DNA of 64,000 nucleotides from Acanthococcus lagerstroemiae (Eukaryota; Arthropoda; Insecta; Hemiptera; Eriococcidae): NCBI GenBank assembly GCA_031841125.1, contig CM063109.1:12624321-12688320 (forward strand), written 5' to 3'. The notes under the pieces are model-generated. The model was not told the origin of the DNA. It searched no databases and was given only the letters and a program-made list of their open reading frames with translations. Shown here in pieces: positions 20,001 to 63,963 of this stretch. Numbering within the stretch: the first letter of the stretch is position 1; each line of letters opens with the position of its first letter. Made by a program: the position numbers and the translations under genes.

Positions 20001-23000
20001 ATGACCGAAAAATTTGAAGTTGTAATATCCGGGATGTCGGGGCGTTTCCCAGAATGCGATGACGTGAACACATTCAAACAGAAATTGTATAACAAAGAAG
20101 AATTCCTCACTATCGATAACCGAAAATGGCCAGTTGGTTACAAATATAAACGTAAGTATTCCACCAAAAGTATGTCCTCTAGAATATTTACAGAAACAGA
20201 TCGATGCAAAAGTTAGTTTTGTAACCAGAGCTATCAGAACGCTATGCTCAAATCCAAGAACCAGCCAATTCAGTTGAATAATAACATTTTGTTAATCATA
20301 ATTTGTAGTTGGAGAGAAAATTATCCCTGATGCCACAGGAAAATTTACGAAAGTGCACCAATTCGACTACAGAGTTTTTAAAATAAATAAATTGTCCGCA
20401 ATTAGCTCTGATGTATTGAATCGAAAAGTACTGGAACCAGCGTTCGAGGCGATCGTAGATGCAGGTAACTAACTACCCACATTTCTGGTAAATAAATAAC
20501 AGAATCGCATATCCCTTCATTTGCGTACCAGGGGGCAACCCTACAATCATTTTCCAGAACGAATTTCACATGTCTGGAACGTTCACGGACCAAGACAAGG
20601 AGATGAGAGGTGAGTGAAGAGACAGCGCGTCCGACCGTGGGGGACCTGAATTCCAGGCAAGCGCTCAGGGAGCGGGAACCTCGGTCAGTAGGGAACCCCA
20701 TGGTGGCCCTGGTAGGACGAGCGCACTGTTGCGGTACGGAGAAATGGGGGCTCGGCTGGCTCCAAGGCGTCCCTCCGGTCACTGATGCGATACTCGAAAG
20801 GGTAGTTTCCGGGGCGGGAGTGCGGTGTCATAGGGGCCACTCTGGCATGCGTGCATCGCCATACGTCCCACCACACCATGTCTGGAACGTTAATTACTAG
20901 ATCCAATCAAAATTGTTCATAGGTACACAGTTAAAGCGTTGAAACCCGAAAACATAAAAAATAATTAATCCCGATTCCCAACCACCAAAGATGAGAAGGT
21001 TCCACTGTTCTTGGATTTGCTGATTTCATACCCGATGTCAAATCATCAAGTACTGCACTGTGAAGTACTCGACATATGGAACCAAAACATTAGAACTAGA
21101 CCATTCATTACGGCATCAAAAATATGCGATCAACCATTTAGAACCTTTATATAAAGACGCAAGAAACCAACAAAAATTAACCGAGGATTACTTATATGTG
21201 ACCTGGAATCATAAAATGTGCCTCTGGTGTCAAAAAATCATTTTTCACTTTCTTGACAATTCTTATAGGAAAAATCACGCTCTTTCGAATGAAAAACAAT
21301 TCGTGGCTCCCTATCTTTATAAGTTTTTCCACAAATTGCATTTAAAAATCACATCAAAAGTTTAAAAACATCCGTTTGTATGGTGTCGTGTGAAACAGGC
21401 CTAGGGGAATGACAGAGAACAAGAATTCAAAACGCGGTTGTCATAGCAACGCATAAACGCACCACCAAAGACATACACGCTATGTACATCTGTGCGCAGC
21501 ACTACCACCATCCCATCTTTACACTCGTTTATTTCAAAAACCTGTTTTCGCACGAGAGGCACATTTCATGATTTCAGGTTACATAAATATAATTACATTC
21601 CCTGCGTCTAATCATCATAGAAAAAAACTCCGAGCCCGGAGGGAAAGTGGAGTTCGCAATGAGACCCAGTGAAATACAACTAAACCGAGAAAATATGGGC
21701 ATTTGAAAACTCAGTTTGTTGGAAAAATCCAGAACCTTTGAAAAAATTCGAGCCTGAAATGAATCTCTTTTTCCCCGTTCTTGTAAGGCCTGAAACCTGG
21801 TCCAGTGTATTTATTTACTGTATAGTCGAAAACATACACACTCATGCATTTCTTGCAAATACAAAGGCATAAATCCGTATTCATTGGACGGTCAAAATGT
21901 GGGAGTATTCATGTCCTGTGGCACCAATGACGTCGACAACAACTTATTCGGAGATAATCGGGAAATATTGTCTCTTATTGGATCGAATAAGACGATGTTA
22001 TCCAATCGTGTTTCCTTTGCTTTCAACCTCACAGGTTAGTTTGTACAGTATTACAGAAAGAAAAAAATCCATAAAAATCTAAGTGAATTAAAAACACACA
22101 GGTACCTACTAGAGAAACTGTAGCAGTTGGTAAGAAGATCAAAATCAAAAAGCGTAATAAAACGACTCCGATATTTATTTAAGCATAGATTATTAATTAG
22201 TAGGTACATTACTGAAACCATCATATTTCTATAAGACTACTCTTTCAGATGCAGGCCAAATAGAAGGCTTTGCCTTCAAAAATATATACCAATGAAAGTT
22301 GAATATAAATAATTAATAATGACATTAAATAACTATATGAATTCGGTTCTAGGTCCCAGTTTCACCTATTTCGCTGATGTACTCGGGGGTATGGAAGCGC
22401 TAGCCACAGGATATAAATACATATCAGATGGGTTTGTAGATGCTGCAATAGTAGGGGTTTCAGCAAGCATTATAGATCCGAAAGTTGGTTTTCAGTTGGT
22501 TGCATTGGGTTTACTCAGTCCAGATGGATGCACTCGCGCTTTCGATAAATTTGGTAATCAACTGATAAGATACCTAATAGTTAATATAAATTGTGGCTTA
22601 TAACAGTGGCGAACCTCCAGATGCATGGATGTACAAAAAGAAGGGAACGTCTCACATCGAAAGCTGTACACTGATGAGATAAACAATTTCAATTTTGCAA
22701 GTATAAGAAGATTTACATAATTCATATTTTGAAAAATTGTAACGATTTTTGACAACAAAGAAAAAAGGAGATGATTTGAGCCTTTCTCGACTGTTTCTTA
22801 CGTTCGCCAATAGCTAATTGTCTACCGAAATATTAGACTAGGTACTTCAATTAGGAATATTTATGAGACTTGACAACAAATTATCTTCATTTTTGTTTTT
22901 ATAACCAGCTGAGGGCTATGGTAGAAGTGAAGGGGTAGTTGTATTCTACTTACAACGAGAAAAAGAAGCAAAACGAAGTTATGGAACAATCAAACTCTGT

Positions 23001-23678
23001 GACACCTATTACTACGGTTCAAATCCGTCCACACTGTTGGGATATAATGAAAATTATTTGAAATCAGCATTAGAAAGAATTTATCAAAGACATAAGTACA
23101 CCGACAGAAATTCTTGGGAAATAGCATTTCTTGAAATGACCGCTTATGGCTGTAAGGTACTTCGATTTTATATACACCCATCAACAGATAATCAGGCGTT
23201 CTTCAAAACGTTGGCACATGCATCAACCAATCTAACGATAATTTTTCTTTTCAGAGATTAGAAAAAATTGAATCAAACGTGATTGCTAGCCTTTTCTGTA
23301 AAAACAGAAACAAACCTTTATTAATTGGATCGGTTAAAAGTAACACGGGACACACTGAAGCAGCGGCTGGCCTTATGTCAGTGATGAAAGCTTTGATGGC
23401 TCTAGACACTGGGGTTATAGCTCCAAACAAGAACTTCTCACAAATCAACGACGAAATTGAAGCACTCAAAGACGGGAGATTACAGGTTAACACAGAAGCT
23501 TATATCACGATTAAAAAATGGGAAACCTTTCGGGAATTCTCTGACATTCTTGATGGTATCCATCAATGTTAATACAGGTGGTTACAAGTCCAACTACATT
23601 ACCCGGGACAACAATTGCAGTAAACTCAATTGGATTATGTGGAACTGTGGCTCAGGCAATAATACAGCAAAATAAAAA
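20001..23678 (+). CDS. Gene A exons 1-7: ketoacyl synthase domain, nucleophile lost
   Basis: Exons: 20001-20151, 20309-20464, 21867-22034, 22353-22553, 22909-23156, 23255-23485, 23578-23678 (residues 1 to about 418). The fold is clear from FEVVISGMSGRFP at the N-terminus, NVGVFMSCG, GPSFTYF, LGLLSPDG, GSVKSNTGHTEAAAG and the C-terminal TIAVNSIGLCG. In active KS the Cys lies nine residues after the Gly of GPS (GPS..xDTACSS); here that residue is Val168, within ADVLGG. The first His of EAHGTG is Thr303 (LEMTAYGCK). The second His, His341 of KSNTGH, is kept. Without Cys the domain cannot form the acyl-enzyme for condensation. Intron 2 (1.4 kb) holds a SINE-like insertion and a foldback element. 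Confidence 0.92.
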
Positions 23679-26600
23679 GTATGTACATCGGTATTTGATA
23701 AGAATTAAATTTTACTCCCACAAATGATTATGTAACTTCGTGGGCAATACATACATTATGATCAATTTTAAAACACTTTGCAGGAAGCCGGAGGCCGATC
23801 CTTCTGTTGAAGAAAAACTCCCTAGGCTGTTGCTGATATGTGGCAGAACAGAAGATGATTTGAGAAAAGTGGTTGAAAAAGTATAACAGACTATCATTAG
23901 CATTAATTCACTTTTAGACAGAAAATCTTTAATATCCAAGCACTTAAAAATTTCAGATTGAGGGTCAACCTTACAATGCAGAATTTGTGGCTCTAGCAAA
24001 TGATGCCTTCACACAGCATATGCCTCTCCACGTATACAGAGCATATACTATTCTTCCAAAACCATTTAAAGCAATACACGGAATTGAGGTGAGTTTACAA
24101 CAACGGAATGAAATAAAAGACACTTGGTCGCCTCATGACAAAACTGTCGCTGATAATACTCCTTGAATGTTTTCAATTTCAATGAAACAGCGGAGTTAGT
24201 AGAATTGTTACCGTGATTAAAACGCATTTCTACCCAAGAGGGGGGGGGGCACATGTACCTGGAGGACTGAGCATAACACAAGGTTACATAATTTGCTTTC
24301 CCTACCATACAATGTAAACCAAGATCCAAAATGATCTCAGTTAGCATAATCTTTCACTTCAGGGGAAAAACCTTCTTGCACTCGGCCCTCCAACTCTGCT
24401 CAATATACCAAATAACAAGATCTTTTCTATTAATTAGGAAAGAGGAGATCAAAATCGACCAGTTTGGTTTCTCTTTTCTGGAATGGGATCGCAATGGAAT
24501 GGTATGGGAAAAGGATTACTCGATTTACCCATATTTGCTAACACCGTGGCTAGATGTGACAAAATATTGCAACCCAAAGGCGTCGACATTTACAATATTT
24601 TAACCACCGATAATCCCACGGTATTCGATGATATCCTCAATGCTTTTGTTGGTATAGTTACTATTCAGGTCAGTTTCCTATGTAAATGATATTTACGTGA
24701 TAACAGCTAATATAATACTGAATTACATCAGATAAAAAAAAGAGAAGCTTTAAAATTATTTCCAGGTAGGATTGGTGGAAGTACTTAAAGTTCTTGGTAT
24801 TGAGCCCGATGGCATCATTGGACATTCAACAGGAGAAAATGCCTGTGCATATGCAGATGGCTGTCTTACTCTCGAGCAAGCAGTATTAGCAGCATGGGCA
24901 AGAGGCGTTGCATCTTTGGAGGCGCAGACTATAAAAGGCATGATGGCTGCTATTGGTATGATAATCTTCTTCAATAATGTATAAGTAATGGTTCTTTGTA
25001 TTGTATTCAATAATGTATGTCTAATAGTTCTCTGCTTTGTACTACTATACGCGAACATAATTTGTAACAAGGAAAGGGATACACCGCCATTAAGCCATTA
25101 TTACCTGAAGGCATTGAAGTAGCCTGTCACAACTCTATGGAGAGTAGTACGCTCTCAGGGCCTGCGGAGAAAGTCAGCAAATTCGTAGAGCAATTACAGA
25201 AGGAAGGAGTTTTTGCAAGAACAGTAAATGCTGCTAATATTGCTTACCATTCCAAGTATCTAGCTCCTGCAGGACCTATTTTGCTCTCACGATTAAAGAA
25301 GGTACTTCGCATTTAATAATTGAGCTACCAGTAGTCATCAGAGTAGAAATATACCTATTGATGAAGGGTGAGAAAAGAGTGAAGCTCCCTCTAGCCCTGA
25401 CACTTCAGCCGGCTGCCATAATTACTTTCAGAGGACGATAGTTGAAAAATTATGTTCTATTACCTATTGGGATAACGTTCAGAATCAGCAACAGAGAAAC
25501 TGCGCACCATTTACATTGGCTTTTTGACATATCACATTTTTCAAACTTTGATACTCATCAATACCTAATACATTCCAGGTGATTCAAAATCCGAAGCCGC
25601 GTTCCTCTAAATGGATAAGCACATCAGTTCCAGAATCCAACTGGGATACACCGCTGACCAAACACTGTTCAGCTGAATATCTAACTAACAACCTTTTAAA
25701 TCCAGTTTTATTCGAGGAGGGTTGTAAGCACATACCAAATAATGCTATTGTGATTGAGCTCGCCCCACACGGAATTTTCCAAGCAATTTTGAAACGCTCG
25801 TCACCAGACACTTGCACGAATGTACCTTTGACCATGAGATCCAAAACACGCGATAACTTGAATTTCTTACTGTCTGCTATTGGCAAGTAGGTTTCAGTGT
25901 TTAAAACAGATATCTACTTTACGCTTTAGGTAGTTTTTATTCAGTAACTGATTGAGTACTTGATTTCTCATTTCCGTGCTGATTTTTCAAATTCAACACA
26001 AAACTTTCTTTGTTACAGTAATATTTTTAGGAAGTTTCAAGGGTCCTCGGTATTTTTTTCTAGTGTTCATGTTGGAGTGTGAGTGAACTTGGTAAATTCT
26101 GTATGTAGGGTGTGCCAATTCACAATTTCTTTCTTCTGTAGTCCAACTACAGAAGAAAGAAATTGTGAACTGACACACCCTACATACAGGACTATAGAAG
26201 AAAGAAATTGTGAATTGGGACACCCTACATACAGAATCTTTTTACTACTTCAAAATTCGTCCTTTGTGAATGCTATCAACCAAAGAACACTTCCCCATTG
26301 TACATAGTACCTATAAATGCTGCACATTCTCAATTTATTTTCAGATTATATATTGCTGGACTTGAGCCTAACGTGAACAACCTGTTTCCTAAAATCGATT
26401 ATCCAGTATCCAGAGGAACGCCCTCCATTTCTCCTCTTTGCACTTGGTATCACGATGCTGATGATGTATGTCCTCGACACTTGACACCAAAAAAGGTAAC
26501 ATGTGACAAACTGTTCGAACTTTTGAAAAAGGCATTAGGATAGTTGTGGCTGATGTATGTATTTTCTTTCAACAGGATGCACCATTATCGAATGAGTCTA

Positions 26601-35600: not shown

Positions 35601-38600
35601 TACAGGTTTGTCTGCTTATTACCTTGCAGGCTAACGGTTGAAAGAATTTGACTGTTGCGAGGATTCAATGTTTACTCGCCCTCTGCCCTTCAAATGTATG
35701 GGGATTAAATTTTAAGATTTTGATTTAAATAACGTTTTTCCTTTATTTCTTTATTTTTTTCTTTTTAGTCATTAAACATGATTCAGCCAACCGGCCCTGT
35801 GACATTAATCAGCGAAACGTGGAATTTAAATATCGCCTTAGAGCTGAAATCCCTTATCGCGCTGACAGGTCGGCCATCAAAATTATTCATTCTCGAAGGT
35901 AATCCAACAGACTGGCAAAAACGCATGAAGCACCTTGGTTCTGTGAATTCTGTGCAGTTTAAAATTAATTTGATCAAAGAGATTTTCCATTTTGACTCCC
36001 AGGTAAGTTAAACTTCCTTAGAATTTGAATTGGTTTTGGGCAATTAACTTCTCTAATTCATTAGATCGACGAACCGATTTCAGATCCAAACGGAGAAAAG
36101 ACTTGATCCTGCTATCTCATTTCAAGAGAAGGTTAGGCAGTGCGCCAGGAGGTATTTCATCAAGAACCGTGATGTAGATTCCGTAGTCAGAATTGCGAAT
36201 GTCATACACAAACAACTTTTGATGGCTTCGTCGTTCAGTTTGGAGGATAATATGCTCACCAATGTAATAATGTTTCAACAACATATGTCTAATGAAGCAG
36301 CGCTGAAGGTGAGTGAACGCAGTTTGATGCAATGTTATATGTAATTGATTTCTAACAAATTGCAATACTTGTAACTTCCGAAGGGATGGCCTTGTGTGCT
36401 CTGGACGAGACAGCTTCATTGCTAGAGAACATAGGGTAGCTGAGGCTGCATTCCCTTATTCCATGATTGTCTTGAGTTCTTAATTAAATTAATTGAAGAT
36501 GACAAATGATTGTTAAGATCCGTTTGAACTAGTAGGAAAAGAGTCATGAAGATTAATAAAAGGTATTTGAAAATTAAAAAAAGATTTAGAAGTAATGAAA
36601 TATTGAAGAGCAAATTTAGGAAAGCTTGTTCAAGTAATGTGTGATTATCAGGGACGTACCGATAGGGGGGCAGGGAGCAATTTACCCCCCTGTAGTAATT
36701 TTTCACTCAGCAGTTGGAAAAATTTACAACCATTTCAGTCAGGCGAGCTGGAAAATCCGAATAGTTAAAAAGTTTTTTTTTTTTTTACTTTAATACTTGG
36801 GAATTGAATTGAGAAGTTGGGAAAACCCAACAAAGTCAAACGATTTTTCTTCTTTTGCATTGATACTTGGGAATTTCGAGTTGAGTCAGTTGAGACTTTC
36901 ACCCCCTCCCCCTAGAAACCCTTTCGGTACGTCCCTGGTGATTATGCATAAACTATCATAAGTACAGTAACACCTCGTTATAGTACGATTGAAGGAACTG
37001 AATGAAATTCGCACCATAAGCGGGTTCGCACTAAAAGCGGGTTTCAAAAAAAAAAAAAAAAAAAAAATGCAATAAAATTCAAATGAAATCTGTAATGTGA
37101 ATTTGGCGAGTAGGCGTGTTACTAAACATAATAAAATGTTCCAGTCTATCAACATCAGATACAATATTATAAGGAGTACTAGTTGTAGAAATGTATTGTC
37201 GAAGAATATTAACAGCCTCTAAATCTGCATTTCGTGATGGTACTGCTGCAGCTTTCACAGCAACACCCAACACTACAATCATCTGCATCAAAATCTTCAT
37301 CACTTCCGACTGTATTTTCGGCTATAACTTACTTCTGTGTCGAAAAATACCTTCCTTATAAGCGGGTTTTACTCGCCTTATAAGAGGGTTCTTTCCTACA
37401 GGCTTTTATGGGAATGTCTAAGGACCATGAAAAATTCGCACTACATGCGGGTTCGCACTATAAGCGGGCGCACTATAACGAGGTTTTACTGTATTTATTA
37501 ATTTTCTATTCATCACCCCTCCCCCTCGGTCGGTATCACTTAACAGCATTCTTCGGCAAAGTTGGGGTAAGATCATGATGCGTGGTTACTCAAAGAAAGT
37601 AGTGTTTGGTTTCTCGAACAATCTTTCCTGCAGTGATTAAGAATACATAGTATGGCGCGCGAGGGAAATGCAGTTGTTGAAGTTAGCCCCTTAGAAATAG
37701 AATGACGAGTCCCTATTCCAGCCTTTTGCGAGTCGAGTGATGCCTCTACTACCAGGGGTTCAAATATTGTACCTACATAATATCCTCCTTGCTCTTCATC
37801 TTCGAGTCGAATAATACTGAAAATAAAGAGTAGTATGATGAAGAATAAACGTTTGAACCTTCAGTTAGGGTATGAATATCTTGTTTCTTTTTTGATCGTT
37901 GATAGTTTGTACTTAATTCGTGTACTATATCTGAATGCCGGAAATGCAAAGTATGCTAAGTGCCATTTTTTCGAAATAAAATTTTGGTGCAAAATACGCT
38001 AAGTCACATCCAACATGCATACAAATATTCATAAGCGTCGGAACACTATTCCAAGAGGTTCATATTTCCACTAGAAGATTTCGTTGTCTGTAACTCCATA
38101 ACCCAGTGGCGTAGCTAGGGGTTTCCCAAAGGGGGGCACTATAAGGTTTTCAAAGGAGAAAAAGGAGAAAATTGAGGTTTTTTTAAAAGTCGCCAATATT
38201 AAAGGACTATGTAAAGATATTGGGGACACGTGCCCCCTCGTGCCCCCCCCCCCGACGCTACACAACTGCCATAACCTTATTTTCAGGCAAATCATGCGAC
38301 GTGCTATCCGAGTCTACGCTGAACAACATGACGTTATCAGATTGCGTTATATGCACTGCAAATTTATTTTTTCCTCTCTCCTGTGAAGTTTGGTTTTTGG
38401 CACTTAGCATACTTTGCATTTCCAGCATTCATCTCAAGTTTACTGTGAAGTTTATATGGTTGCATAACTTGGAATGGGGCATTTCTTTGAAACTAAATTA
38501 AATAACTGTTAGAAAAATACTACGCTCATAAGTGGTTTTTAACGTTTCTTTCTTCTTCAGCTGTCCGTTTCCAGCGAGGTCATAGTACTGAATGAACCAA

Positions 38601-38765: not shown

Positions 38766-38798
38766 TATCATCTTCCATTTTTTTTCCCCAATTTTTAG

Positions 38799-45176: not shown

Positions 45177-45347
45177 CTCATGATCTTATGATACCGCCGT
45201 CAGTATAACAAATATCAACTCTAATGGATAACTGAGAAGTAATCGCAAAAACCTTCTACCAAAAGATACATCATAAATTTTCTATACATGGACAAAATGT
45301 CAAAATTGTGTGCATAAACTTCGTGATTTAGTTGTAAAAAGAATTAT

Positions 45348-46500: not shown

Positions 46501-46505
46501 CACAG

Positions 46506-46691
46506 AGTTCAGTGTATGATAGACCACAACTGAATTGAACTCGCTGGTAAGTTTCGGCTTTCAGTGTTAAGAAAGCTGTAAAATAATCAATTTTCCATCG
46601 ACCTTAATTTTATAATCCATTTAGGTAATCTATGCTCTCTATTAATTGTGTTTCTAAAACGATAGTTCCGTACACAAGGTATACCAGTACC
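46506..46691 (+). promoter_or_regulatory. Possible initiator and spliced 5' leader of gene B
   Basis: TTCAGTGTATG at 46509 fits the arthropod initiator consensus TCAGT. It is followed by a donor CTG|GTAAGT at 46547 and, ahead of the start codon, an acceptor CGATAG near 46665, so a short non-coding first exon is plausible. This rests on consensus matching only. Confidence 0.3.
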
Positions 46692-49600
46692 ATGTCACCC
46701 AAGTTCGACGTAGTGATTTCCGGCGTATCGGGCCGATTCCCCCAGTGTGATGACGTGATCACATTTAGACAGAAATTGTACAATCAAGAGAATTTCATTA
46801 CATTCGGTGATGAAAAGTGGCCGGCACATTATAAGTACAAATGTTAGTTTTCAACAAGTACCTTAATAATTAGAAAAAAAAGAAATTTAAGCTATATCCG
46901 GATGCGCAATACGTTACCCTCTAATTACCCACAGAAAAGTTACCCATTTGCAACCCTCGGTTACCCTCAGATTACCCAGAAACCCATCGGTTACCCTTGG
47001 TTCCTTTTTCGTTACCCGGGTAACTGGCGGGATTTTGCGCATCGGGTATACATATATCTTCCGAACTACGCATTCTTCATAAGACCTACATTATTTTTCT
47101 GTTTCCAGTTGGCGAAGCTACCATTCCACATGGCACTGGAAAATACACAAATATCGATAAATACGACGCCATGGTTTTCAAACTAAATTACGTGTTTGCA
47201 AAAAGTAATGACATTATTAATCGGAAAGCCTTGGAGCCATCGTTTGAAGCTATAATGGATGCTGGTAATTGTTCAACGATAACGCTCAAGTACCTAATTA
47301 CACTACCAATTCAAAAGGGCATATAGGATTTCCCCGAGAAGTTATTCGGAAGATTCAGTCTTTCCTCCCTTGCCACACCCCACTGTGATTCTAATTTGAC
47401 TATATCTTATGATAACATTCGCAGGTATAAACCCATATACACTGGATGGACGAAACATTGGCGTATTTATGTCTTGCGGAATCAACGAAATGGACAGTAA
47501 AGGGTTGAATGCGAAAGGCGACGTACAAGATCGTAATTTACTAATGATGATCGGATCCAGCAAAACCATGATGTCTAATCGTATTTCATTTGCATATAAT
47601 TTCAAAGGTAATGTATGTGTATAAGATCAATAAGGTCTCATTGAATTAAAGCGACAGAGGATGAATGAATTTATTCATAATTAATTCAAAAACAATGTCG
47701 CTTCGAAATTGCGAGAACATGAACGAAGGTAGATGCTATCAAGGTAAGCTAAAAACTAACAGTGAAATATGATAAGCGGTAGGACAATCATGATGTGAGA
47801 ACGAGGAAGCGATTAGACGGGAATGAACGGGAAAATAGGAGAGAAGGAGTAACGGGATTACGAATGGTTCTTACATCCCCCTTTCCCAAACGTTTAAGAG
47901 CGCAAGGAGGATGAAGGGGGCTGAGGAAAAGGATTGGACATTCACTCTTACAAAGATGAGAAACTTATGACTAATTTACAGGCAAAATTTTACTTGCGTG
48001 GTACAAACGTTGAGAGTACGGTCCATGACCTAAGTTTACTTCAAAAACGTTACCAGAAAGCTGCTTAGAAATCGGATATGGACCGATGCGTAATAAGTCT
48101 AACTTGTCACGGTTTAACTTGCTACCGTTGGAAATATAAACTAAATCGCCTATTTTAAAATCTACATCTAATTTATTTTTATCGTAGACAGACTTATTAT
48201 AATTATGGTAACGTATCGTATTATTTAAAGCAACTCGCTTGTCGGTTTCGTAACTCGGGGAATTAATGAGCTCAGGAGGAAGAAAAGTTGAGGGAACGCC
48301 GGTAAGGAGATAAGAAGGAGAAAAGCAAGTGACGCTGTGAGGAGTAGAGTGAATAATTTATCGTGATGGGACAAATCAGTATACTCCGTTGGAAACTCAT
48401 AGGTTTCATGATCGAAGTCATCATCGAGGAGCTCTATAAAACTGAGTGCCCATACGTTACACTTGCTATCAGCCTTCGAACCCACAACATACATGGTAAA
48501 ACGTGCACGGACCGACGACATAACAGCGGAAGAAGAAAGTACGGCAACGAAACAAAGCACGTGAAACGTTGAAAAAAAAGAAAATTTAATTAGGTATTCG
48601 CAAAATACGCGAAACGAAAAGTTTTTGAATTTATAAGATCAATAAGGTCTCATTGAATTAAAGCGACAGAGGATGAATGAATTTATTCATAATTAATTCA
48701 AAAACAATGTCGCTTCGAAATTGCGAGAACATGAACGAAGGTAGATGCTATCAAGGTAAGCTAAAAACTAACAGTGAAATATGATAAGCGGTAGGACAAT
48801 CATGATGTGAGAACGAGGAAGCGATTAGACGGGAATGAACGGGAAAATAGGAGAGAAGGAGTAACGGGATTACGAATGGTTCTTACATGTGTATGACTAG
48901 CGAATTAGCATTATCATGTTAGTAAACAAAAGCGATTTTGGTAGGTTTGTAGACCTCTAGCTCCTGTTCGGGATAGAACGAATTACTGATAAGATTTTAC
49001 TGCATAATAAAGCCAGGTCTGGATTAAGGTTTCTGGGACCCCTAGGTTGCTTACTATGCTAGACCTTGAAAATGTCGTTTGGCGCCGTACTTAATAAACT
49101 TGACTGTAAACAAACTATACTACGCAGTATTTATGCATCAGTTCGAAAGAATTCAAGTATTTTTGCTTCGGGGATATGTCCAGTCTGTCTGTCTGTTTTC
49201 CCCGTTGCCCTTCCCATGCTCTACCCAATCAGTGGAAAGGCAGATTCGATTGGTCAGTCAGGCATCAGTGACAGTTTGTAGCGAAGAAAGACGTAATGGG
49301 TTTATATATGCTATGTACCTTAAAAATAGGAAAAAATCTTCCAAAATTCGGCAAGTTTTTTCAGATAGTTTCGTTTTTTTTGTTTTTTTTTTAATCTGTA
49401 TGTATAATATAAAAATGTGTATGTGTCCTCTTCATATTTCCATGGATATTTCTATTAACAATACGACGGCAGACTGTGGTCTCGTAGGGCGCAGCATAGA
49501 TCAAGTTCAGTGAGCACATGGCTGGAAGAGAAATAAATTTCCATGGAAATGTCAACCACTGAACTGACTTCTCACCATGAAGAGCTAAATCATACGGACT

Positions 49601-52600
49601 CGAAATTTCTATGGCTGCAAACTGCAGTTGCGCAGGGCTCAGCAAATGTCAACACGATTTTTACTCAAGTACACCCATGGCTGGAAGAAAATGGAAATAT
49701 CAACCACTGAATTGAATTGTCACCATGAAGAGCTAATGAACTGTGAGCTGAAAACTGAGCTGGAAATGAGAAGATAAAAGAAGAAGACCTGTAGTCGCGC
49801 AGGGCGCAGCAAGGATCAAGATCAATGAGAATATGGCTGGAGTTACGGTTTTCGCTCAAGTAATATACCCATGGTGTGGTGGGACGTATGGCGATGCACG
49901 CATGCTAAAGTAGCCTCTATGACACTGTACCCCCGGCCCCGGAAACTACCCTTTCGAATATCGCATCAGTAACCGGAGGGACGCCTTGGGGCCAGACCCG
50001 AGCCCCCATTTCTACGTGCCGCAACGGTGCGCGCGTTCTACCAGGACCACCATGGGGTTCTCTACTTACCGAGGTCCACACTCCCTGAGCGCTCGCCTGG
50101 AATTCAGATCCCCCAGGCCGGACACGCTGCCTCTCTTCACTCACCCCTCACCTCCTCGTCTTGGTCCGTGTGTCGACACATGCAGGTGGTAACGACAGGT
50201 GAGCATACCCATGGCTGGAAGAAAATGAGAATATCAGCCACTGAATTCGTGTCGGGAGACCTCACGACTGTCACTGTTGTGCTTATTTTCGCCTATCCAT
50301 GGAAATGGAGAGAGGGTGCACCTCACGACTCTCATTGTTGCGAAGGCTCCATAACGTATGTACATGGAACGGCTTTTTTCAGTTTTTCAGTTTTCTACTG
50401 TTATTACACTTCCACCTCACAAAGTGAACAGTGCTATTATAATACCGCGAGCCATAAGATCTTATCTTTCACAACGAAGTCATAATGCAATTAGACTTCA
50501 CAATATTGCCAATCAATTCAACCAATTTTCAAAATTTTGGGACTCATGTTGTTTCTGAACTATGTGGTTCAATTGTAGATAGGGGTTAGAGGACTTAAAA
50601 AGGAATAGGATACACGTATGGCGTTCATTGATACTGAAAATTTTTTTGAGAATACTTCGCAATATTGCGAATCAATCCAACAAATTTTCAAAATTTTGGG
50701 AATCATGTTATTTCTGAACTATATGGTTCAATTGTAGATGGGAGACTTGAAAAGGGTACGATACATGTATGGCATTCGTTGATACTGAAAAAGCTTTTGA
50801 CAATGTTAAATGGGATAAAATGTTTGATATTTTGAAAGGATGGGAATAAAGAAGAAAGTCAAGTTATTTGAAATTTATATACCTAACAGATAGAAAGCTA
50901 CATTAAGAATAGTAGGAGAGAAAGTGGAGGCTAATATGAAAAAAAGGCGTAAAGCAGGGGTGCTCCTTATCTTCAGTATTATTTAATTTGTACTTACATA
51001 GAGTGGGCTATAAAATAAATTTTTAAAAAAATTGAAGCAGGTGTAACTATACATGGAGAGCGAGTAAAGATGTAAAAATGCTCAGGTTTGTAAATGATAT
51101 TGTCTTATCAACTGAAAGAAGTACGGTACTGATTTGGAAAATATCTTCAATGAAATGGAGACGATTTTGAGTTGGAATACTGTATGAAAATATTTTAAAA
51201 AATAATACTAAAGTGATAGTATGTAATCGATGTGAACATGATAATTTGAAATAAAAAATTGGTCAGGGAAAAATTGAGGATGTGAGTGAATTTTGCTATA
51301 TCAGGAGTGAAATAACAAAATGTGGAAGGTTTAAAAGAGATATTGTAAAATAGCACAAGCTACATTTGAATTTTATCGAAAAAGTAATTTATTCAAATCA
51401 AAAACATTTTTGAAGTGTAGAGTTGTTTAAAAAGGTTCTCAAAAAGCTTTGAACTTTGTACTTTACTTACTTTGGGCACTCACACACATCTACTTTGGTC
51501 TTTTTCGTTATCAGTAGGATCACGATTAGGCTCCTCTACATTCTTTATTCCTCAAATTGGAGGTTGATGGTATCGAACTCATTTAAATCAACTCACTTTA
51601 GCCAACTCACTTAAGCCCACGGTCTAGCTGACCCGCTTTTCACTAATTTAATAGGAAAAATAGTTCAGAATTCAAGTAAAATTCTAATTAAGTTAAGGTT
51701 AAATCTTAAGTGCATTCCAAGTATGAATGAAAATATGTGTCTCCTAGACCCGATGCGCAGTCAGTTACCCTCTAATTACCCAGTTACCCACGGAAAAGTT
51801 ACCCATTTGTTACCCTCGAATTACTCTCAGTGTTCCCCTTTAGTTACCCAGATAACTGGCGGGTTACTACGCAATTAGTTACCCGGGTAACTTGTGGGAT
51901 TTTGTGCATCGGGGCAGAGACACGTAGTGTAACATTTTATATGCTTTCGTACCCTAATAAAAAAAATTTTCCATCGAAATTTCTGCTAACAACACGGCTG
52001 TAGACTGCAGTCGCGCAGGGCGCAACAAAGATCAAGATCAATGAGCACATGGCTGAAAGAAAAATATCTAAATTCCCATGGAAATGTCAACCACTGAACT
52101 AGTTGTCACCTCGAAGAGCTAAATCATACGAACTGGTTTCGTGTGGGGGGGGGAGATGGAAATTTCTACTAACAACACGGCGTAGTCGTGCAGGGCGTCC
52201 AGCAAACGTAGCGTCCAAAAAATTAGCGCGCCAAAAAATATGGAGCGCAACGTGCTCTGCGGAGTGTAGCGGACGACGAAATTCTCACGTCGGCGCATTC
52301 CGCAAAGCAGACATGAAAATGCTCTCCCGTGGTTGCAGACTCGTCTGCAAGATGATGCACTAGCAGAGCGTAGTGCTCGCAGGCTGGTACAAGGAATGTG
52401 ATGCTCGCAAGGAAATACAGGCTGATAGAAGGAGTTTGGTCCTCGCAGGCGAATAAAGAGTGCTGAGTCAATCAGTCAGTCAGTTCGTTACGGTTTTGCT
52501 CAAGTATATCCAGTAATAAAAGCATATAAAATGCTACGAGTAAATAATCCTTTTACCTTTAGCCAGCACAGTTTCCTAAAAAAAAAAATCATATGGTATC

Positions 52601-55571
52601 TTGTGACTGCGTGTGCAATCTTATACCTACTTCGCTCTCTCATAAGGAAACTATGAATAAATATTTTACATTTGAACACTGGGCTATAGGTGGGGGAGAG
52701 CCAAGTTCAGGGTTGCCAATTTCTGAAAAACCTGGAAAAGTCGTGGATTTTGGATGGTCAGGAAAAAGTAATGGAATTTTCATCCGAATCATGGGATTTT
52801 AATTCTCTGAATGACAAACTAGATTTATGGCTTATATTCTGTCAAAATTTATTGCCAGTGCATAATCACGCTTAAACATGAAAAAGTTTCACCCTTTAAA
52901 AAATATCAGTCATGTACTTTTTCGCATTATTATCAGGATTATGAGAAATAAAAAATCTTGCCAAAATCCATAACTCCTTCCCATCTTGAAAGAAAAAGTC
53001 ATGGAAAATAGAAAAATAAACCTGGAAAACCTGGAGAAATCATGGAAAATCATTATTGAAAAAAAAAAAAAAAACACCTTGAAGTTGCTAGGAAATCAGA
53101 AGAATTTCGCTCGCGAACAGTGTTTTCTAATACTTTTTCAATTTCAATCCCTCTCTTTTCCTGCGACTAAGCCACGGCATTACTTGGACTCGATAGTCAG
53201 TCGGCATATTTATCCTTAAAACGAGTATTGAAGAGTGAAAGTCAGTAACTTTGGATCCATTAGGAAAACAAGTTGTTTTGTTGTTTTTTTGTCTCCATGT
53301 CAATATTAAACATTTTTGCCATTCAGAAAGACAGTAGTCTTCTGTTGAAAAAATTTTAATCGTCTGGTAATAACTGTAGGATCCTCCCCCTTCCCTCTCC
53401 TCCTTTCAGAAAAGTTGCTCCAGTACGTCTTAAAATAAAATAAAAACGTATGATTGAATGAGACATCAACTTTATTGCCATATGTAACCTACTTGTACTG
53501 ATTATCTAGGACCCAGTTTCACATATTACACTGATACTCTTGGAGGCATGGAGGCGCTGCTCGCTGGATACAAAAATATAGCAGACGGATATGTTGAGGC
53601 TGCTGTAGTCGGAATGGCTTCCAGTATTGTCGATCCTAAAATTTCATTGCAGTTTTTGTCACTTGGTCTTCTAAGTCCAGATGCGATGTGTCGTTCCTTT
53701 GATGAATCTGGTAATACTAATGACCTTTAATACTTTCTGTTGTTAATTTACCAATTTCACTATTCAATCGGCCAGCCTCTTGAAATTGCTGTCCAATATT
53801 GAATAGATTTCAAGTTTAGTTTACCTGAAATGTTTGCAGCGAACGGGTTCGGCAGAAGCGAAAGCATGGTGCTTTTCTTCTTACAGAGGGCTGAGGATGC
53901 TAAACGCAACTATGGTACCATCAGGCTTTGCGATTCATATTATCTCGGACTCAATCCATCTACGCTAATTGGCTACGATGAAAATTATATTCTGGATTCG
54001 CTGAAGGCTATCTACAGCCATAGTGACGGGAGGATCAACCCGAGTGAAGTGTCATTTATCGAAATGAACGCATGTGGTGTCCAAGTAATTAAAAATCACT
54101 AGAGCATACATTCATAGGTATTCTTATGAGGACTTGCCGTCTATTGGCTTCAGTATTTTCAAGTGACTCTTGTGAGCACCTTATCAGATGTACACTCAGA
54201 AATTAATTCTAAAAATGGCTCGATAGCTGGAAATAAATTTTGTTCTCGCTAAAGCAATACCGAATTAATTAATTTACAAACCCTGACAAGGAATTTTTGA
54301 ATATTACTTTTTTTCTTTCTTGATATCCCGCTAGCTTCTCTCTATGGATATATGCAGAAGTACAACTAGGTCGCCGTAAAGAGGATGGGGAGTTTAAATT
54401 GGGAAAACTTTTAAAAATACTGTTTGCAAGTGTAGCAAGCGTAAATGTTTGAATTTTTCAGCAAATCCAAGCAGAAAAATTCATTTTTATTATCTGTGGG
54501 AGCAGTTTGAACTTCCAAAACACTTCCCACAACTATGACTCCTGGTGGGTGCCTGTCCCTGATTCCTCTTTACCCGGCTGAAACAAATCATCCTGCAAAG
54601 TTTCGCCAAGTCATTGTATTATTGAATATTTTGAATTTGTCGATTACAGCGACTGGAAGAAATTGAATCGAATGCCGTTGCTGAGATTTTTTGTAAAAAC
54701 AGAAAGGATCCGCTATTGGTTGGATCAGTCAAAAGTAACGTCGGGCATGCTGAAGGGGCATCTGCGATTATGTCTTTGCTGAAAGCTCTATTTATCCTGG
54801 ATACTGATGTTATAGCTCCAAATTTACATTATGAGAAAGCAAATAACACAAATAAAGCGATTCGCGATTGTAAATTGAAGGCACGTGCTATGTTTACTAA
54901 TTACACTACTGAACAACTATTTTGCACAATGCATTTCGACAGGTGATTCTGAGGTACTTTTTAACGCTGAACACGATACTGCGACTCATTTTTCTCTATC
55001 ACGTCACAATTCGGAGTTCTGAACGACTGAAATTCGTTTCCATTTTGTTTTTGCATTGGAATAAGCGGTACCACTGACTGATATTATCAGTGTTATCAGA
55101 CCACAATAACAGAAAACAAACAGACGGAATACACACCACTACACACGACCGCAACACACAACAACACGAATCAGTATGACCACATTCAGTTCCTAAACCT
55201 CTTTTTGAACACATTTTGTTGAATTTTTTATAGTTTTTGATCAGATAAACTAGACGTGATAGAGAAAAACGGCCGACGGCACTGTAATCAGCGTTGAAAA
55301 GTACTCAAGAATCACCTCCTTAAATGCGTTGTGCAAACAAAAAATTTCATTTTGTTCAGTAGTGTTATAATTAGTATTATATCGCTATTATTATAAGATT
55401 TTTAAAACCACATTCATTGATCTGATTCATTTTTGTTTTTTCGTCAACTTCTTTCAATGGTAATAAATAGGTAGTGAAAGAACTGACGAAGTTACCCGGA
55501 AATACTGTCGGTGTCAATTCATTAGGTTTGGTTGGATCGGTGGGACATGTAGTGATTCAACAAAATGAAAA
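46692..55571 (+). CDS. Gene B exons 1-7: ketoacyl synthase domain, nucleophile lost
   Basis: Exons: 46692-46842, 47109-47264, 47425-47607, 53510-53710, 53840-54084, 54650-54880, 55471-55571. Recognisable blocks are FDVVISGVSGRFP, NIGVFMSCG, GPSFTYYTDTLGG, LGLLSPDA, GFGRSESMV, GSVKSNVGHAEGAS and TVGVNSLGLVG. The residue at the catalytic Cys position is Thr173. The first His of EAHGTG is Asn307 (IEMNACGVQ) and the second is kept as His345. The domain cannot act as a classical condensing enzyme. Exon 6 is 231 bases, identical in length to that of gene A, which fixes its end at 54880 and requires the GC donor there. Confidence 0.91.
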
Positions 55572-58500
55572 GTAAGTCATTTTATTACAACCCACCTCCC
55601 GACGTTCCGACCCGTGTACATACTAATACTTCAATCTTTTGTTTTCAGAGAACAATCTGACCATGCAGGCAATGAAAGTACTTTTCCGAGACTTCTGTTG
55701 ATTTGCGGTCGAACAGAAGAGGGCTTACAGACAGCGATCGGTAGGGTAAGCAGTACTTCCCGTTATTTGTTCTCGTTATTAATACCTACCAAATATCCTT
55801 GATCCCACGCATTGTATGTTTTTTTCTATCTGTTGTAGATTGAAGCTCTACCTTTTAATGCCAACTTTGTATCCTTAGCTAATCAGGTATTTGCTTCATA
55901 CATGCCCCTGCATGTACACCGAGGATTCACAATACTCCCAAAACCATTCAAGTCGTGGTGTTTCACTGGGGTACGTTTGATTCGCTCAATGAATCACTTA
56001 TAGGTTCCTAAGTATAAATAAGTCTAACACTAGCACAATCCTGCAAAACTTGTGAAAATGGTTTCAGTAGATAATACCCAGGGCCGGCGGAAGTCCAGTT
56101 GCACTGAGCACGTGCACCAGATGCGGGATTTTCCACTTGATGCATTGCACCAGATAGAAAATCCACATGTTTTTAATAATTCAATTTTTTTAAACTTATC
56201 AGTACTTATTGGATGGTTTTGTGTTTCAATTTTCTTGGGGGGACGGGGAGGATGTTCCAAGGTTTCTTATTTAGAAGTCTTGTATTTGCACCAGAGGAGA
56301 AAATAAGAGATCGCTGCCTCTGACGATACCTGTCTTAGCGTTTCCATATTTACGGCGACGAATGAATAGAAAGAGCGTTTTTAATCATTTTCGATGTGTA
56401 TTTTAGGCTCGAGGAGATCGGAACAGACCCATATGGTTTCTGTTCTCTGGTATGGGTTCGCAGTGGAATTGTATGGGAAGAGGTCTGTTGGATATTCCAA
56501 TTTTCGCAAACGTGGTTCGAAGATGCAACGCTGTTTTACAACCCAGAGGTATAGACATATACAAAGTATTGACGTCTGATGATCCCACCATATTTGAAAA
56601 TATTGTAAACTCTTTTGTTGGGATTATTACTATTCAGGTAAGGAGAACTTTTACACTACACAACAGCATAAAGAACAATGTGATGAGATTATATGATTTT
56701 AGCTTTACAATGTTTACATGAATGCTCTGAATACAATAGCGTTAACTATTTTTCTCAAAAACCTCTCGTTTTCCATAGGTATTCAAAATTAAAATTTTAT
56801 TAAATTTTTCTCGTTTTATTCCTTTTTGTTGTCTACGAATAACTACACTGATATTGATAACAATTCGCGAATGTAAGCACCTGTAGATAGCGCTCGTTAA
56901 TCGGGATCGTGAATATTTTTTAAACATTGTAACACAATCTGCCCGAAGAAAACGTCACAAATGTCAGAACAAATGAATAATAAAATTCGCTTAAAATAAT
57001 TCACCTTCGATATAATATGAACAATTAATTGTAATTGTGAGCGAAAATTTCATTAGCATATACGACTCATCTTCATAATCCCGATTAACGATTAGTTTAT
57101 TCAACTGCCGCTAGTAGCGTAGTTTCACTTACATTCGCCAATACTGAACGTGCATAGTTGTTTGATCAGTGGTGTAATCTTGATGATACTAAAATTCGCA
57201 TTTCAGATATAGGAGGTAAGAAAAAAAAATTAACTATAATCCAAAAATTAACATCAGCATTAAATTCCTCATTGAAAATACTACTTATTGGCGTTTGGAC
57301 ACTCCTGTAGGTGGGTAGGTGCGCTAGTGTCGAGGGTGAGAAGATCATCAGAATATTTTCATCATAAAAACATGTACAAGTAAAATAAGCTCTAGCATCT
57401 TCAATATTGTTTTTTATGGAAAACTGAAGAGATTAACTAAAGTGTTAGCCCTTATCATTTCCTTTCAGATGAGCCCAACTTCAGTTTTTCTTTGCAGAAC
57501 ATTTTTGTCACTGATCATCTTTTCGTCCAAATACACCGCAATCAGCGCGCCGAATAGATAGAATCATTATGTTCTCATATCATTGTTTCTTACAAAATGT
57601 CAAATTTTTGTGTAGTGTTATTGATGAAAATCCTTCAAGCTCCATCTACGAACCTATTTCTATTTGTGAAATATTGTGAATTTTTCATTTAGATCGGATT
57701 GGTTGAAATACTAAAAGCTTTGAAAATCGAGGCCGACGGTATTATAGGTCATTCAGTTGGAGAAAATGGTTGCGCATATGCTGACGGCTGCCTTACTCTC
57801 GAACAAACAGTTCTAGCGTCGTGGGCTCGCGGCGTTGCATCCACTGAGGTCGTCACAGTGAAGGGCATGATGGCTGCAATTGGTGAGTTTCAAGTTTTTC
57901 ACATGCTACTAAAACCACTTGATTTTTCTGCTAAAAAGGTGTTACTTGCAGGCAGAGGATATGATGCGATAAAAACGTCATTGCCTCAAGATATTGAGGT
58001 GGCATGTCATAACTCGACTGACAACTGTACACTTACCGGGCCAGCAGACAAGGTGCACTCATTTGTGACTGAATTACAGAATAATGGAATATTTGCCAAA
58101 GCTGTGAATGTGGCAAATATCGCTTATCACTCTAACTACATAGCTCCAGCAGGGCCAGGATTGCTAACACGATTGAAGGAGGTAGAGCTTTATCAAGTGT
58201 TAGATATTTTACTTACATGTTAGGTACATTTGCAATTACAAGCTACACTGTATCAAAATATTCTCAAACTTTCCTCATTCCGAAGTTTCTATATGTACCT
58301 ATCTATGTACAGGTTATCACCGAACCAAAAGCGCGTTCTTCTAAATGGGTGAGCACTTCTGTGCCAGAATCAGCCTGGGATACGCCTTTAGCAAAATTTT
58401 GTTCCGCCGAGTACTTCACCAACAATTTACTCAGTGCTGTTTTATTTGAAGAAGGCTGTAAACATATACCTGATAATGCGATTGTGATTGAAATAGCTCC

Positions 58501-61500
58501 TCATGGATTACTTCAAGCTATTCTGAGAAAATCGCTACCTAGTTGTTCAAATATACCTTTAGCAGTGAGATCAAAAACTCTAGAAAATCTGAAGACTTTA
58601 CTGTCCGCGATAGGAAAGTAAGTGAATTAATAGGCTATAAATGCTTCATTTATGTACTTGCTATGTTGTCAATTGCTATACATATATTCGGAGGAAATAA
58701 TAACAGTTATCAATCGCAGATTATACATAGCTGGTTGCGAACCCGACGTGAACGCTTTGTATCCGGAAACCACGTACCCCGTGCCTAGAGATACTCCGCC
58801 AATCTCTCCGTTTGCAGTCTGGGACCACTCTGCCATAGACGTGAAAATGAAAGCTGTAGAACGACCAGTATGTAACATGTTCTGTTTATTATATTTGAGG
58901 AAAACTAATGGAGTCGAGAGCCTATAATAATTATTTCCTCTCTCACAATTTAGGAATGCAGTTTGTCTGGTGACTTCATTTACATTCAAGTGAACGAAGA
59001 TTCGCAGTATCACTATCTGCGGCATCATAAAATCGGCGAGAAAATTTATATTCCACCTGCATTCTTCATGGTTAGTAACTCGACTCTTCTATTATTTAGG
59101 TACAAAATGATGAATTTTCTTCTTTTATGCCGTGAGTATGATTAGGATACAGGACAAAACCTAAAAGTGCCTACCTAACTGAAGTTTGTTTTAGTATCTA
59201 ACATGGTCAATGTCATCTCTTATGAAGAACACAACAGTAGAAACTTCTTCCATATTATTTGAGAATATAAGGGTTCATAAAAATATCACTATTTCTTTAA
59301 CTGGTAAGTATGAGTCTGTAATACTACAATATACAACTTCGAGCACTTATGCGAGTGAATATGTGTTCTGAAATGTTCGAATCATATTCGGAAACACATC
59401 TCTGGTTGAGCCTGTTTTCCATGATTCGTAGAAATATTTTGAAGGACTGAAATAGCATTATGTATGCATCATCTTATACCAATATTTATATACCTAGTTC
59501 ATTCTTTCACTAGAGCCCAAAACAGTATCATTGATGATCCAAGAATCGGGAAATTTCGAGATTTTTTTGGAGAATGGAAATGAATCTCAGGAAGTCACCG
59601 TTATCATGTCTGGGAAAATAGAGCAAATTTCGCAAAATGCTAACATTAATTTCCGTGAAGACACTAGTGGTGATGCAAATATTATAATCAGCGCCGGCGA
59701 ATTCTACAGTTTGTTGAAACAAGCTGGTTACGTCTTAGATGATTGTTTCGTATCGGTGAAGGAACTGTGGAAAACTGAATCTGGTAAGCTACATGTACAA
59801 GCTACCTATTAGCTACCACTAGAGTACCTATAGTGCCTACATAGCATATATTCTCTGATATGCCGTATATGTGCTCTCATGAGCGACATTTTTCTAATAG
59901 CAAATACCCAACCTCTTTAAGTTGAGTGATGCGTAATCGTCGACTTGAACAACTTTGCAGACTGTTTTGGGCGAATTTTATGGAATGAAAATTGGGTAGC
60001 TTTCTTGGATTCACTTATGAAGTTCCAGATGTACTCGAGTATGACAACATCGAACTTATTCTGCCCAATATTCATTAGAAGATTGTTCATTTGTGGTTCC
60101 GAATTTAAGTCCATCCAGAAAGGTAGATTTTCTGAACAGTATGTTTTTTTCTCGAATTGGTTCACTGCAGTGAAAATCGTTTGTAGGTTCTTTGCAAGTG
60201 GATCGGAAATTTGATGTGTAACTACTGGTCATAGTAGCCGGTAGTGTTTTCTTAACAGTTAATATTTTTTTGGTGAATATTTCTGTATTTATCTGCAGGT
60301 AGTGTCTTCGTGTGCCACGAAAACCTTCTCACGAATAGTATACTGTGCAATGGCCTTGAGATGAGGGGCTTGGAGTATGAACCGATGCAGTTGTCTTCCC
60401 GGTGTGAAAGTGATTCAAAACTGAAACTGGAAGGATTGCGTTTCATTTCATATACGAACGGTGGATGTCAGGTAACCATTACTGAACGCTTTTTAGGAAA
60501 GCAAGGCTGACTCGAGGAAGAAAGGATGATTTCAAAAATGTAAACTAAAATCTCTAATGCTTAGCTGATAAGCAAACATGAGTTTAAAAAGTCCTCAGTT
60601 GACTCACGTGTGGTGTTTATAGCCGAAATCTGTCAAGAATGCCAGAAACTTGCCAATAATATCGACTTATCAGACGGAGTGGTGTTACCCACATCCTTTG
60701 CGTCGGCCTTGCTAAAAAGTAATCGTACTTGACTCTTTGTTCGCTGTGAAATAATACAGAATTTTTATCACGGTATAGTCAGAGTGCCAATTTATCAAAC
60801 TGTGTCTTCACTTGGTTTCTGAATACTTAATTATGGCAGAGAACAACAACGATAGCAAGCTCTCGGTTGTCAATGAATTGAAGTACCTTGAGGCACCTAT
60901 CAGGAGAATTATAAATGAGGACAGCACCTTAAAGGTATTCAGTTTCGTAGAACGGTTTTTTGAGACTTCAGAAACCGTGGTTACATACTTTTTACATTTT
61001 GCTGTTCGTTCTTCCAAATTCCAGTCTAATGTATGCTTGCATAAATCAAAAGAAGAATTTTGTTGGAAATCAAGTGGATGCAAAACGTGTCTTTTTTTAA
61101 TGACAGACGATCTTAGTGGAGCCATTACCTTTGATTTGGATCTTCTTTTTGCTTTAACCATCGTCCCAGATGATACTAATTTCGAGACCAGCAACGCATT
61201 CATTGAAATTCTGAAAAGAACGTGGAATAAACAAACCTATTATTTCTTCAAAAAGGTTAGTCAGATGTTTTAGTAGAGAGAATAGTTGAGGGGTAAAGAA
61301 TCAAAACTCACATTTGCCATTTTACTTCAAGGGCGCCAATAGACAAAATACTGTACACGCGTACAGGAATATCTTAGCTGCGCCTGTGAACGTGGAGTAT
61401 GTTATACATATCGCGCATTTACCGGCGCAGCAAAGATATTCCTGCACCCGTGTACAGTATTTTGCCTATTTGCGCCCTTGAAGTAAAGTGGCAAATGTGA

Positions 61501-63963: not shown

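What the first reader, a model, noticed from the sequence alone, without database searches (positions are those of the whole stretch)
20001..63963. Tandem pair of FAS-derived pseudo-synthases that keep long open frames but lose most active sites
Seen: two head-to-tail animal type I FAS-like genes, one complete over 35 exons (2,164 codons, no stop or frameshift). KS, ER and, in gene A, KR, ACP and TE lack their defining residues, while MAT is whole. Known: active animal FAS needs all of these. Inference: these are retained pseudoenzymes with a new job, such as acyl-CoA or malonyl-CoA handling or acting as a partner or dominant subunit of a true FAS. Two copies losing the same sites with different replacements argues for long tolerance or selected loss rather than recent decay.
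Basis: partly seen in the sequence, partly recalled or inferred. Interest (0 to 1): 0.9.

Follow-up and report, generated by a model that had tools for sequence, protein, structure and literature searches.

The report
Ancient MAT-only insect pseudo fatty-acid synthases
In a scale-insect-like genome, a row of giant genes that look like fatty-acid synthases has lost the parts that build fat chains but keeps the part that picks up malonyl building blocks, and the same kind of protein occurs in cockroaches, locusts, beetles and bugs, so it probably has a job other than making fat on its own.

Summary
Gene A (20001-38690): 35 exons, 2,166 codons. Gene B (46692 onward) leaves the window and ends 6.6 kb beyond. 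With the best template neither model has a stop or frameshift. They are two of at least nine same-strand copies along 0.43 Mb. All nine lack the ketosynthase (KS) Cys and first His; all nine keep the malonyl/acetyl-transferase (MAT) Ser, Arg and His. ACP and half of KR are deleted and the thioesterase Ser is Thr in the six copies read that far.

They belong to an insect clade of condensation-dead FAS paralogues (Hemiptera, Coleoptera, Blattodea, Orthoptera): 64 rows held, none with KS Cys, MAT Ser/Arg/His intact in 64. Trees give it one origin (100/100) beside 'cluster II' FAS; a Hymenoptera group arose separately with a similar pattern. Young array copies show dN/dS 0.30-0.40.

So these are retained pseudo-synthases. 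The clade overlaps Finck's 'cluster III' (printed as unmodified in KS) and ar-clade 3 of Lin's FAS-like polyketide synthases; I found no report, in what I could search, that it is KS-dead. Best guess, inferred: a MAT-bearing accessory subunit of a competent FAS in cuticle-lipid synthesis.

The parts
20001..38690 (+). Gene A: 35 exons, 2,166 codons, FAS-like pseudo-synthase (one of nine array copies)
   Evidence: Spliced alignment to P0001
46692..63963 (+). Gene B, the 29 exons that lie in the window; 7 more exons lie beyond the window end
   Evidence: Spliced alignment with the fetched flank
22370..22390 (+). Gene A KS nucleophile site, FADVLGG in place of DTACSSS (Cys lost)
   Evidence: coordinates read
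53527..53547 (+). Gene B KS nucleophile site, YTDTLGG (Cys lost)
   Evidence: coordinates read
24438..25886 (+). Gene A MAT exons 10-13
   Evidence: Pfam Acyl_transf_1 residues 505-822, 241.7 bits against cut-off 32.7
24820..24837 (+). Gene A MAT nucleophile motif GHSTGE (Ser kept)
25242..25253 (+). Gene A MAT His motif AYHS (kept)
56407..58617 (+). Gene B MAT exons 10-13
   Evidence: Pfam Acyl_transf_1 221.0 bits
57747..57764 (+). Gene B MAT nucleophile motif GHSVGE (Ser kept)
35811..35828 (+). Gene A thioesterase nucleophile site, SETWNL in place of GYSYGG (Ser to Thr)

Best explanation
A and B are two of at least nine tandem copies, in a scale-insect-like genome, of an old insect clade of fatty-acid-synthase paralogues that cannot condense acyl chains. 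Shown from sequence: KS nucleophile and first His, the KR catalytic part, ACP and (in this coccoid branch) TE Ser and His are gone; MAT is the one domain with all its catalytic residues; the youngest copies are under purifying selection. Inferred: the KS and reductase folds are kept as a scaffold, and the protein works as a MAT-bearing accessory subunit that, through the FAS-type dimer surface or co-localisation, loads malonyl or methylmalonyl from CoA onto the ACP of a KS-competent FAS and so tunes lipids sent to cuticle hydrocarbons and wax. The retained-pseudo-synthase part I hold at about 0.9, the accessory-MAT mechanism at about 0.4; the figure below is for both together, loosely read.
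For: MAT Ser, Arg and His intact in 64 of 64 clade rows (A and B included) and in 9 of 9 array genes. Of 50 MAT columns invariant in 38 control FAS, 96% are kept in the clade, 96% in A, 98% in B; KS 64%, DH 49%, ER 51%, KR 27%, ACP 12%. In matched sets of six insects mean divergence is KS 0.23, MAT 0.31 in complete FAS but KS 0.60, MAT 0.42 in the clade. One clade, 100/100, no Cys-bearing row inside it among 222. A separate Hymenoptera group, 9 rows, lost KS first His, ACP Ser and KR Tyr and kept MAT Ser/Arg/His 9 of 9. dN/dS 0.30-0.40. The same genome has KS-intact FAS genes, one with an intact MAT too. Locust FAS3, in this clade, is mainly expressed in integument, lacks ACP, and its silencing alters hydrocarbons (PMC11855270, passages; PMC10764717, section 10).
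Against: No expression, biochemistry or interaction data. On young branches the dead domains are as constrained as MAT, so selection may be on the scaffold, not on MAT chemistry. The cluster II-like FAS on C8 of the same genome has its own MAT, so it does not need a second one. Array gene g1 was not clean with any of five templates, and clean models for others were picked among templates. KS Lys is lost in 3 and KS second His in 5 of 9 array genes, so the KS is still decaying. A review reports that knock-down of four Blattella FAS genes raised total hydrocarbons (PMC8027674, passages); if members of this clade are among them, a loader is a poor fit and a brake a better one.
Confidence: 0.5

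Rival explanations
1. Regulatory pseudo-subunit: it pairs with an active FAS as a dead half and lowers or redirects output; MAT is kept because it is the best-packed part of the KS-MAT body or binds malonyl-CoA as a sensor.
For: Dead domains are under purifying selection too. Four Blattella FAS knock-downs raised hydrocarbons (PMC8027674, passages; which genes is not known to me).
Against: All three MAT catalytic residues stay fixed in 64 of 64 and 9 of 9 rows while KS sites turn over, more than packing alone would need.
Confidence: 0.25
2. Stand-alone malonyl- or acyl-CoA hydrolase or transferase to a target other than a FAS ACP; the ancestral form may have paired MAT with a working TE.
For: TE Ser and His are both present in 18 of 64 rows, mostly beetles and cockroaches; TE Ser in 36 of 64.
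Against: TE Ser and His are both lost in the six array genes with data, so in this lineage only MAT remains.
Confidence: 0.15
3. Active animal FAS-like polyketide synthase, as ar-clade 3 is classed by Lin et al. 2024.
For: Locust FAS3 is placed in ar-clade 3 by that paper, and the record of that name, P0041, lies in this clade.
Against: No row of the clade has KS Cys, KS first His in 3 of 64, KR Tyr in 0 of 64, ACP motif absent.
Confidence: 0.04
4. Slowly decaying paralogues or an assembly artefact.
For: g1 shows a stop or shift with each of five templates; the DH-ER region evolves fast, dN/dS 0.40-0.66.
Against: The other eight genes have at least one clean model over the stretch held, though for g2, g3, g8, g9 and A other templates gave stops; dN/dS intervals for whole proteins exclude 1; the same losses recur in many species.
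Confidence: 0.06

Closest known systems
Finck et al. 2016 'cluster III' aberrant insect FAS (PMC5039406)
   Same: FAS paralogues without the ACP, with altered DH, ER, KR and TE, in several orders; includes a female-biased grasshopper gene and Tribolium TC000238 (passages and Discussion part 1).
   Different: They state that KS and MAT are unmodified and favour repeated lineage-specific origin from cluster II; here the KS is dead throughout the clade and one origin is supported for the sampled non-hymenopteran rows. I did not have their alignment, so overlap is by description and by shared kinds of species.
Arthropod AFPK ar-clade 3 (Lin et al. 2024, PMC10764717)
   Same: Locust FAS3 is their named member; the record P0041 of that name lies in this clade.
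   Different: They predict polyketide-making enzymes; the residues needed are missing here. That P0041 equals their accession was not checked.
Complete animal type I FAS (insect cluster I and II)
   Same: Same domain order in KS-MAT; parent family.
   Different: KS, KR and TE residues and ACP lost; about 155 residues fewer between KR motif and TE site.
Trans-acyltransferase polyketide synthases of bacteria (recalled)
   Same: If the inferred mechanism is right, an acyltransferase serves carrier proteins on another polypeptide.
   Different: Bacterial trans-ATs are small discrete enzymes; this would be a MAT inside a dead FAS scaffold, in an animal.

Membership tests
Functional animal type I FAS | KS Cys-His-His | tested here: not met
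   Cys and first His lost in A and B and in 9 of 9 array genes; second His kept in A and B
Functional animal type I FAS | MAT Ser, Arg, His | tested here: met
   9 of 9 array genes, 64 of 64 clade rows
Functional animal type I FAS | ACP with phosphopantetheine Ser | tested here: not met
   No Pfam match at E up to 1 in gene A; deletion
Functional animal type I FAS | KR Tyr and nucleotide motif | tested here: not met
Functional animal type I FAS | TE Ser and His | tested here: not met
   Thr and Tyr in the six array genes with data
Finck cluster III | FAS paralogue without ACP, altered DH/ER/KR/TE, derived from cluster II | tested here: met
   cluster II as neighbour in trees
Finck cluster III | KS and MAT unmodified (as printed) | tested here: not met
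   MAT yes, KS no
AFPK (FAS-like polyketide synthase) | Working ketosynthase | tested here: not met
   By residues only; activity not testable here
AFPK ar-clade 3 | Common clade with locust FAS3 | tested here: met
   P0041 inside the clade, 100/100; identity with the paper's accession not checked
Trans-acyltransferase system | Acyl transfer to a carrier on another protein | not testable with these tools
   Needs biochemistry
Trans-acyltransferase system | A partner synthase lacking its own AT | tested here: inconclusive
   C8 cluster II-like FAS of this genome has a MAT; a C3 one showed no MAT match in the 8.2 kb held, too short to say; Finck et al. report MAT-less cluster II FAS in Orthoptera, Coleoptera and Diptera

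The most novel reading that the evidence does not exclude
Insects run an in-trans acyltransferase system inside a dead fatty-acid synthase: one old FAS copy gave up chain building and became a dedicated malonyl/methylmalonyl loader and scaffold for the hydrocarbon-making FAS, and Hymenoptera evolved a similar arrangement a second time.
Probability: 0.25. Interest if true: 0.85.

Novelty: new variant of a known kind. Interest (0 to 1): 0.62.

Why it matters
At least 62 public proteins, many of them named fatty acid synthase or fatty acid synthase-like, sit in a clade that lacks the residues for the defining reaction. Published knock-downs of insect 'FAS' genes include the clade (locust FAS3 by my tree; Tribolium TC000238 by Finck's assignment, not checked here), so what those phenotypes mean needs rereading. 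The outcome, condensation lost and MAT kept, at least twice, allows a sharp test: what does a MAT do without its synthase? In this scale-insect-like genome the family forms an array of at least nine genes, and scale insects depend on wax.

Tried and rejected
Independent loss in each order: rejected for Hemiptera (31 clade rows held together with two hemipteran cluster II rows: log-likelihood 216 lower, p-AU 2e-101; the tree had been seen before the group was named). The Blattodea and coccoid versions were started and not finished. Hymenoptera first joined the main clade through one long row (P0070); with Orussus and Leptopilina added they moved next to or into hymenopteran cluster II, so I count two origins. 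A and B were sisters in trees without the array; with it they are not resolved as sisters, so 'tandem pair' is dropped. P0106 (Cys to Ser alone) and P0119 (Cinara), both in the complete-FAS part of the tree, and P0070 also lack KS Cys; they were dropped from the 67 rows without Cys to give 64. The 64 were picked for lacking Cys, so 'KS Cys in none' is by choice; the finding is that they form a clade with no Cys-bearing row inside. One of the 64 has a gap at that site. ACP Ser aligns as S in 5 of 64 rows, which I take as misalignment since the motif is absent. A-B dN/dS could not be given: silent sites saturated. No structure prediction was run: the spliced proteins exceed the length limit. The count of MAT domains in the genome (PF00698) did not complete. 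The ten paper searches and the passages read showed no report that this clade is KS-dead; the original LmFAS3 and BgFas papers were not seen, so this is not proof.

Full report
What is there. One search showed that the window is insect: the nearest proteins are two 'fatty acid synthase-like' records of the mealybug Planococcus citri (45% identity) and a protein of the soft scale Parthenolecanium corni (44%). I wrote a spliced protein-to-DNA aligner and used these as templates. Gene A is 35 exons, 20001 to 38690, 2,166 codons, no stop, no frameshift with template P0001; with P0003 the model ends one exon earlier and has one stop in a differently chosen exon. Gene B starts at 46692, leaves the window, and with the flank is 36 exons, clean with template A; it too ends after 2,166 codons (2,164 aligned plus two before the stop). 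A and B are 48% identical over 2,141 positions, 72% in MAT and 58% in KS, and share 28 of A's 34 intron positions and phases exactly.

A pair becomes an array. When the genome tool answered it placed the window at C4:12624321-12688320 of a 658 Mb assembly and listed KS matches along C4 from 12.40 to 12.82 Mb, all on +. I fetched much of that stretch and modelled nine genes on the same strand: g1 12398942, g2 12452264, g3 12506845, g4 12552862, g5 12594513, A 12644321, B 12671012, g8 12794567, g9 12820259 (first modelled base). C4:12718001-12794000 and three smaller gaps were not read, so nine is a lower bound. g3, g4, g5, A and B are read whole or nearly so; g8 lacks its first exon; g1, g2 and g9 were held in part. 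Templates matter: g4 and g5 are clean with the one template tried; g2 is clean with one of five, g3 with two of five, g8 with two of four, g9 with two of four; g1 with none of five (a shift near 12420613-12420635 with three, stops with two). For each gene a clean model was taken where one existed, which favours the open reading; lesions in g2, g3, g8 and g9 move from template to template, as mis-chosen exon ends do.

Active sites. In all nine array genes the KS nucleophile and first His are gone and MAT Ser, Arg and His are kept. KS Lys is lost in 3 and KS second His in 5 of 9. The KR catalytic part and ACP are deleted: 276-283 residues separate the KR glycine motif from the TE site in the six copies with data, 435 in the complete Planococcus FAS. 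In those six the TE Ser is Thr and the His is Tyr. Pfam agrees: gene A passes the curated cut-offs for KS, MAT and FAS pseudo-KR, not for DH, ER, KR, ACP or TE, while the complete P0057 passes for all of these.

The family. Two searches list 120 proteins each, 220 distinct, out of 1,111 and 2,367 that passed; the rest were not seen. Of 222 rows with A and B, 67 lack the KS Cys. Dropping P0070 (Hymenoptera) and P0106 and P0119 (outside the clade) leaves 64, A and B among them, which form one clade with no other row in a FastTree of all 222. With a site-mixture model and the tabulated catalytic columns removed, the clade has SH-aLRT 97 with P0070 inside and 99 without (75 rows), 100 (75 rows) and 100/100 bootstrap/SH-aLRT (48 rows). 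It holds Hemiptera, Coleoptera, Blattodea and Orthoptera and stands beside 'cluster II' FAS, which include mayfly and damselfly records. Whether it is sister to the whole of cluster II is not firm (SH-aLRT 87; open). No named fly, moth or caddisfly protein in the two capped lists fell in the clade, which does not show absence.

Pattern of loss. In the 64: MAT Ser 64, Arg 64, His 64; KS Trp at the Cys site 46, one gap; KS first His 3; KS Lys 63; KS second His 61; DH His 38; KR Tyr 0 (63 gaps); TE Ser 36; TE Ser plus His 18. Against 38 control FAS, 96% of 50 invariant MAT columns survive; linker 75% (11 columns), KS 64% (113), ER 51% (71), DH 49% (40), TE 44% (3), pseudo region 28% (6), KR 27% (60), ACP 12% (10). 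In matched sets of six insects the order of divergence, KS below MAT in complete FAS (0.23, 0.31), is reversed in the clade (0.60, 0.42). The residue before the MAT His is Tyr in 54 of 64, as in 19 of 20 cluster II rows, and Phe in 18 of 18 cluster I rows, which fits descent from cluster II.

A second, independent case. Nine hymenopteran rows (Orussus, Leptopilina, Belonocnema) have KS first His as Asp in 9, KS Cys kept in 8, KS second His in 1, no KR Tyr, no ACP Ser, no TE Ser, and MAT Ser/Arg/His in 9. Six of the nine were put in the tree (inside Hymenoptera cluster II, 99) and three in that (next to it, 81/99). So condensation was lost and MAT kept at least twice.

Selection. A and B differ at 0.78-0.88 of silent sites in the six blocks computed, while non-synonymous differences run from 0.17 (MAT) to 0.49 (which then stopped on a script error; completed). 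Young copies allow ratios: g3-g4 0.32 (0.27-0.37), g2-g4 0.30 (0.25-0.34), g1-g4 0.31 (0.27-0.36), g2-g3 0.40 (0.33-0.50). Domain values lie at 0.19-0.66; two intervals, both for g2-g3 (the DH-ER region and KR), reach 1. On these branches the dead domains are about as constrained as MAT, so the whole scaffold is under selection. In the coccoid tree g8 and g9 group with the Planococcus and Parthenolecanium proteins (100/99) and g1-g5, A and B form a group of their own (100/99), so the split between the two groups is older than the parting from those lineages.

Partners at home. Short loci of the same genome show KS-intact motifs: a cluster II-like gene on C8 with KS and MAT motifs intact, two C3 loci with KS Cys and an EAHG motif, and loci on C5, C6 and C240 with the Cys motif. 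The cluster names for these rest on motifs and, for C8 and one C3 locus, on best match, not on a tree. For that C3 locus no MAT match was found in 8.2 kb, which is too short to judge.

Mechanism. Standard enzymology (recalled): animal FAS condensation needs the KS Cys and an ACP. So these proteins should not make fat alone. Inference: strict conservation of MAT, twice, plus constraint on the rest, suggests a loader or scaffold acting with a real FAS. Papers give function without mechanism: locust FAS3 lacks ACP, is mainly expressed in integument, and its authors doubt that it completes synthesis alone (PMC11855270, passages); its silencing is said to alter hydrocarbons (PMC10764717, section 10; the original paper was not seen); Tribolium TC000238, put in cluster III by Finck et al., is lethal on RNAi (PMC5039406, passages and Discussion part 1). 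Against a simple loader, four Blattella FAS knock-downs raised total hydrocarbons, genes not named in the passage (PMC8027674). In a mealybug two FAS genes are up-regulated in integument (PMC9582030, passages); which kind is not known to me.

Relation to print. Finck et al. described cluster III, said its KS and MAT were unmodified and favoured repeated origin; Lin et al. counted ar-clade 3 among polyketide-making enzymes. My data disagree with the first on KS and on origin within Hemiptera, agree that a separate case exists (Hymenoptera), and make a self-sufficient polyketide role unlikely. I did not have their alignments, and their groups may be wider than this clade.

Noticed in passing
array genes g2 and g3 (G000 C4:12452264 and 12506845): Silent divergence in MAT (0.09) is about half that of the other domains (0.15-0.27), as gene conversion would give.
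   Followed up: no
P0041, residues 1100-1216: The locust FAS3 record carries a reverse-transcriptase match (PF00078, 66.6 bits) inside the protein: a retroelement insertion or an annotation error in a published gene.
   Followed up: no
11646-12368 (+): Reverse-transcriptase ORF (PF00078, 52.7 bits), a retroelement upstream of gene A.
   Followed up: partly
41063-41731 (+): 222-residue open frame between A and B that by eye resembles a DNA-transposon transposase (recalled); Pfam gave nothing at E up to 0.001.
   Followed up: partly
P0119 (Cinara cedri): Another FAS copy without KS Cys or first His but with MAT Ser and His, outside the clade among complete FAS: possibly a third loss of condensation with MAT kept.
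   Followed up: no
P0099 and Leptopilina rows: Hymenoptera copies keep KS Cys in 8 of 9 but have first His as Asp (EADG), a state also common in the main clade (Asp in 22 of 64), reached separately by my tree.
   Followed up: partly
window intron 3 of gene B, 47608-53509: This intron is 5.9 kb against 0.3 kb in gene A, with open frames on the minus strand near 47971-48638 that look like mobile-element remains by eye; Pfam gave nothing for 47971-48357.
   Followed up: no
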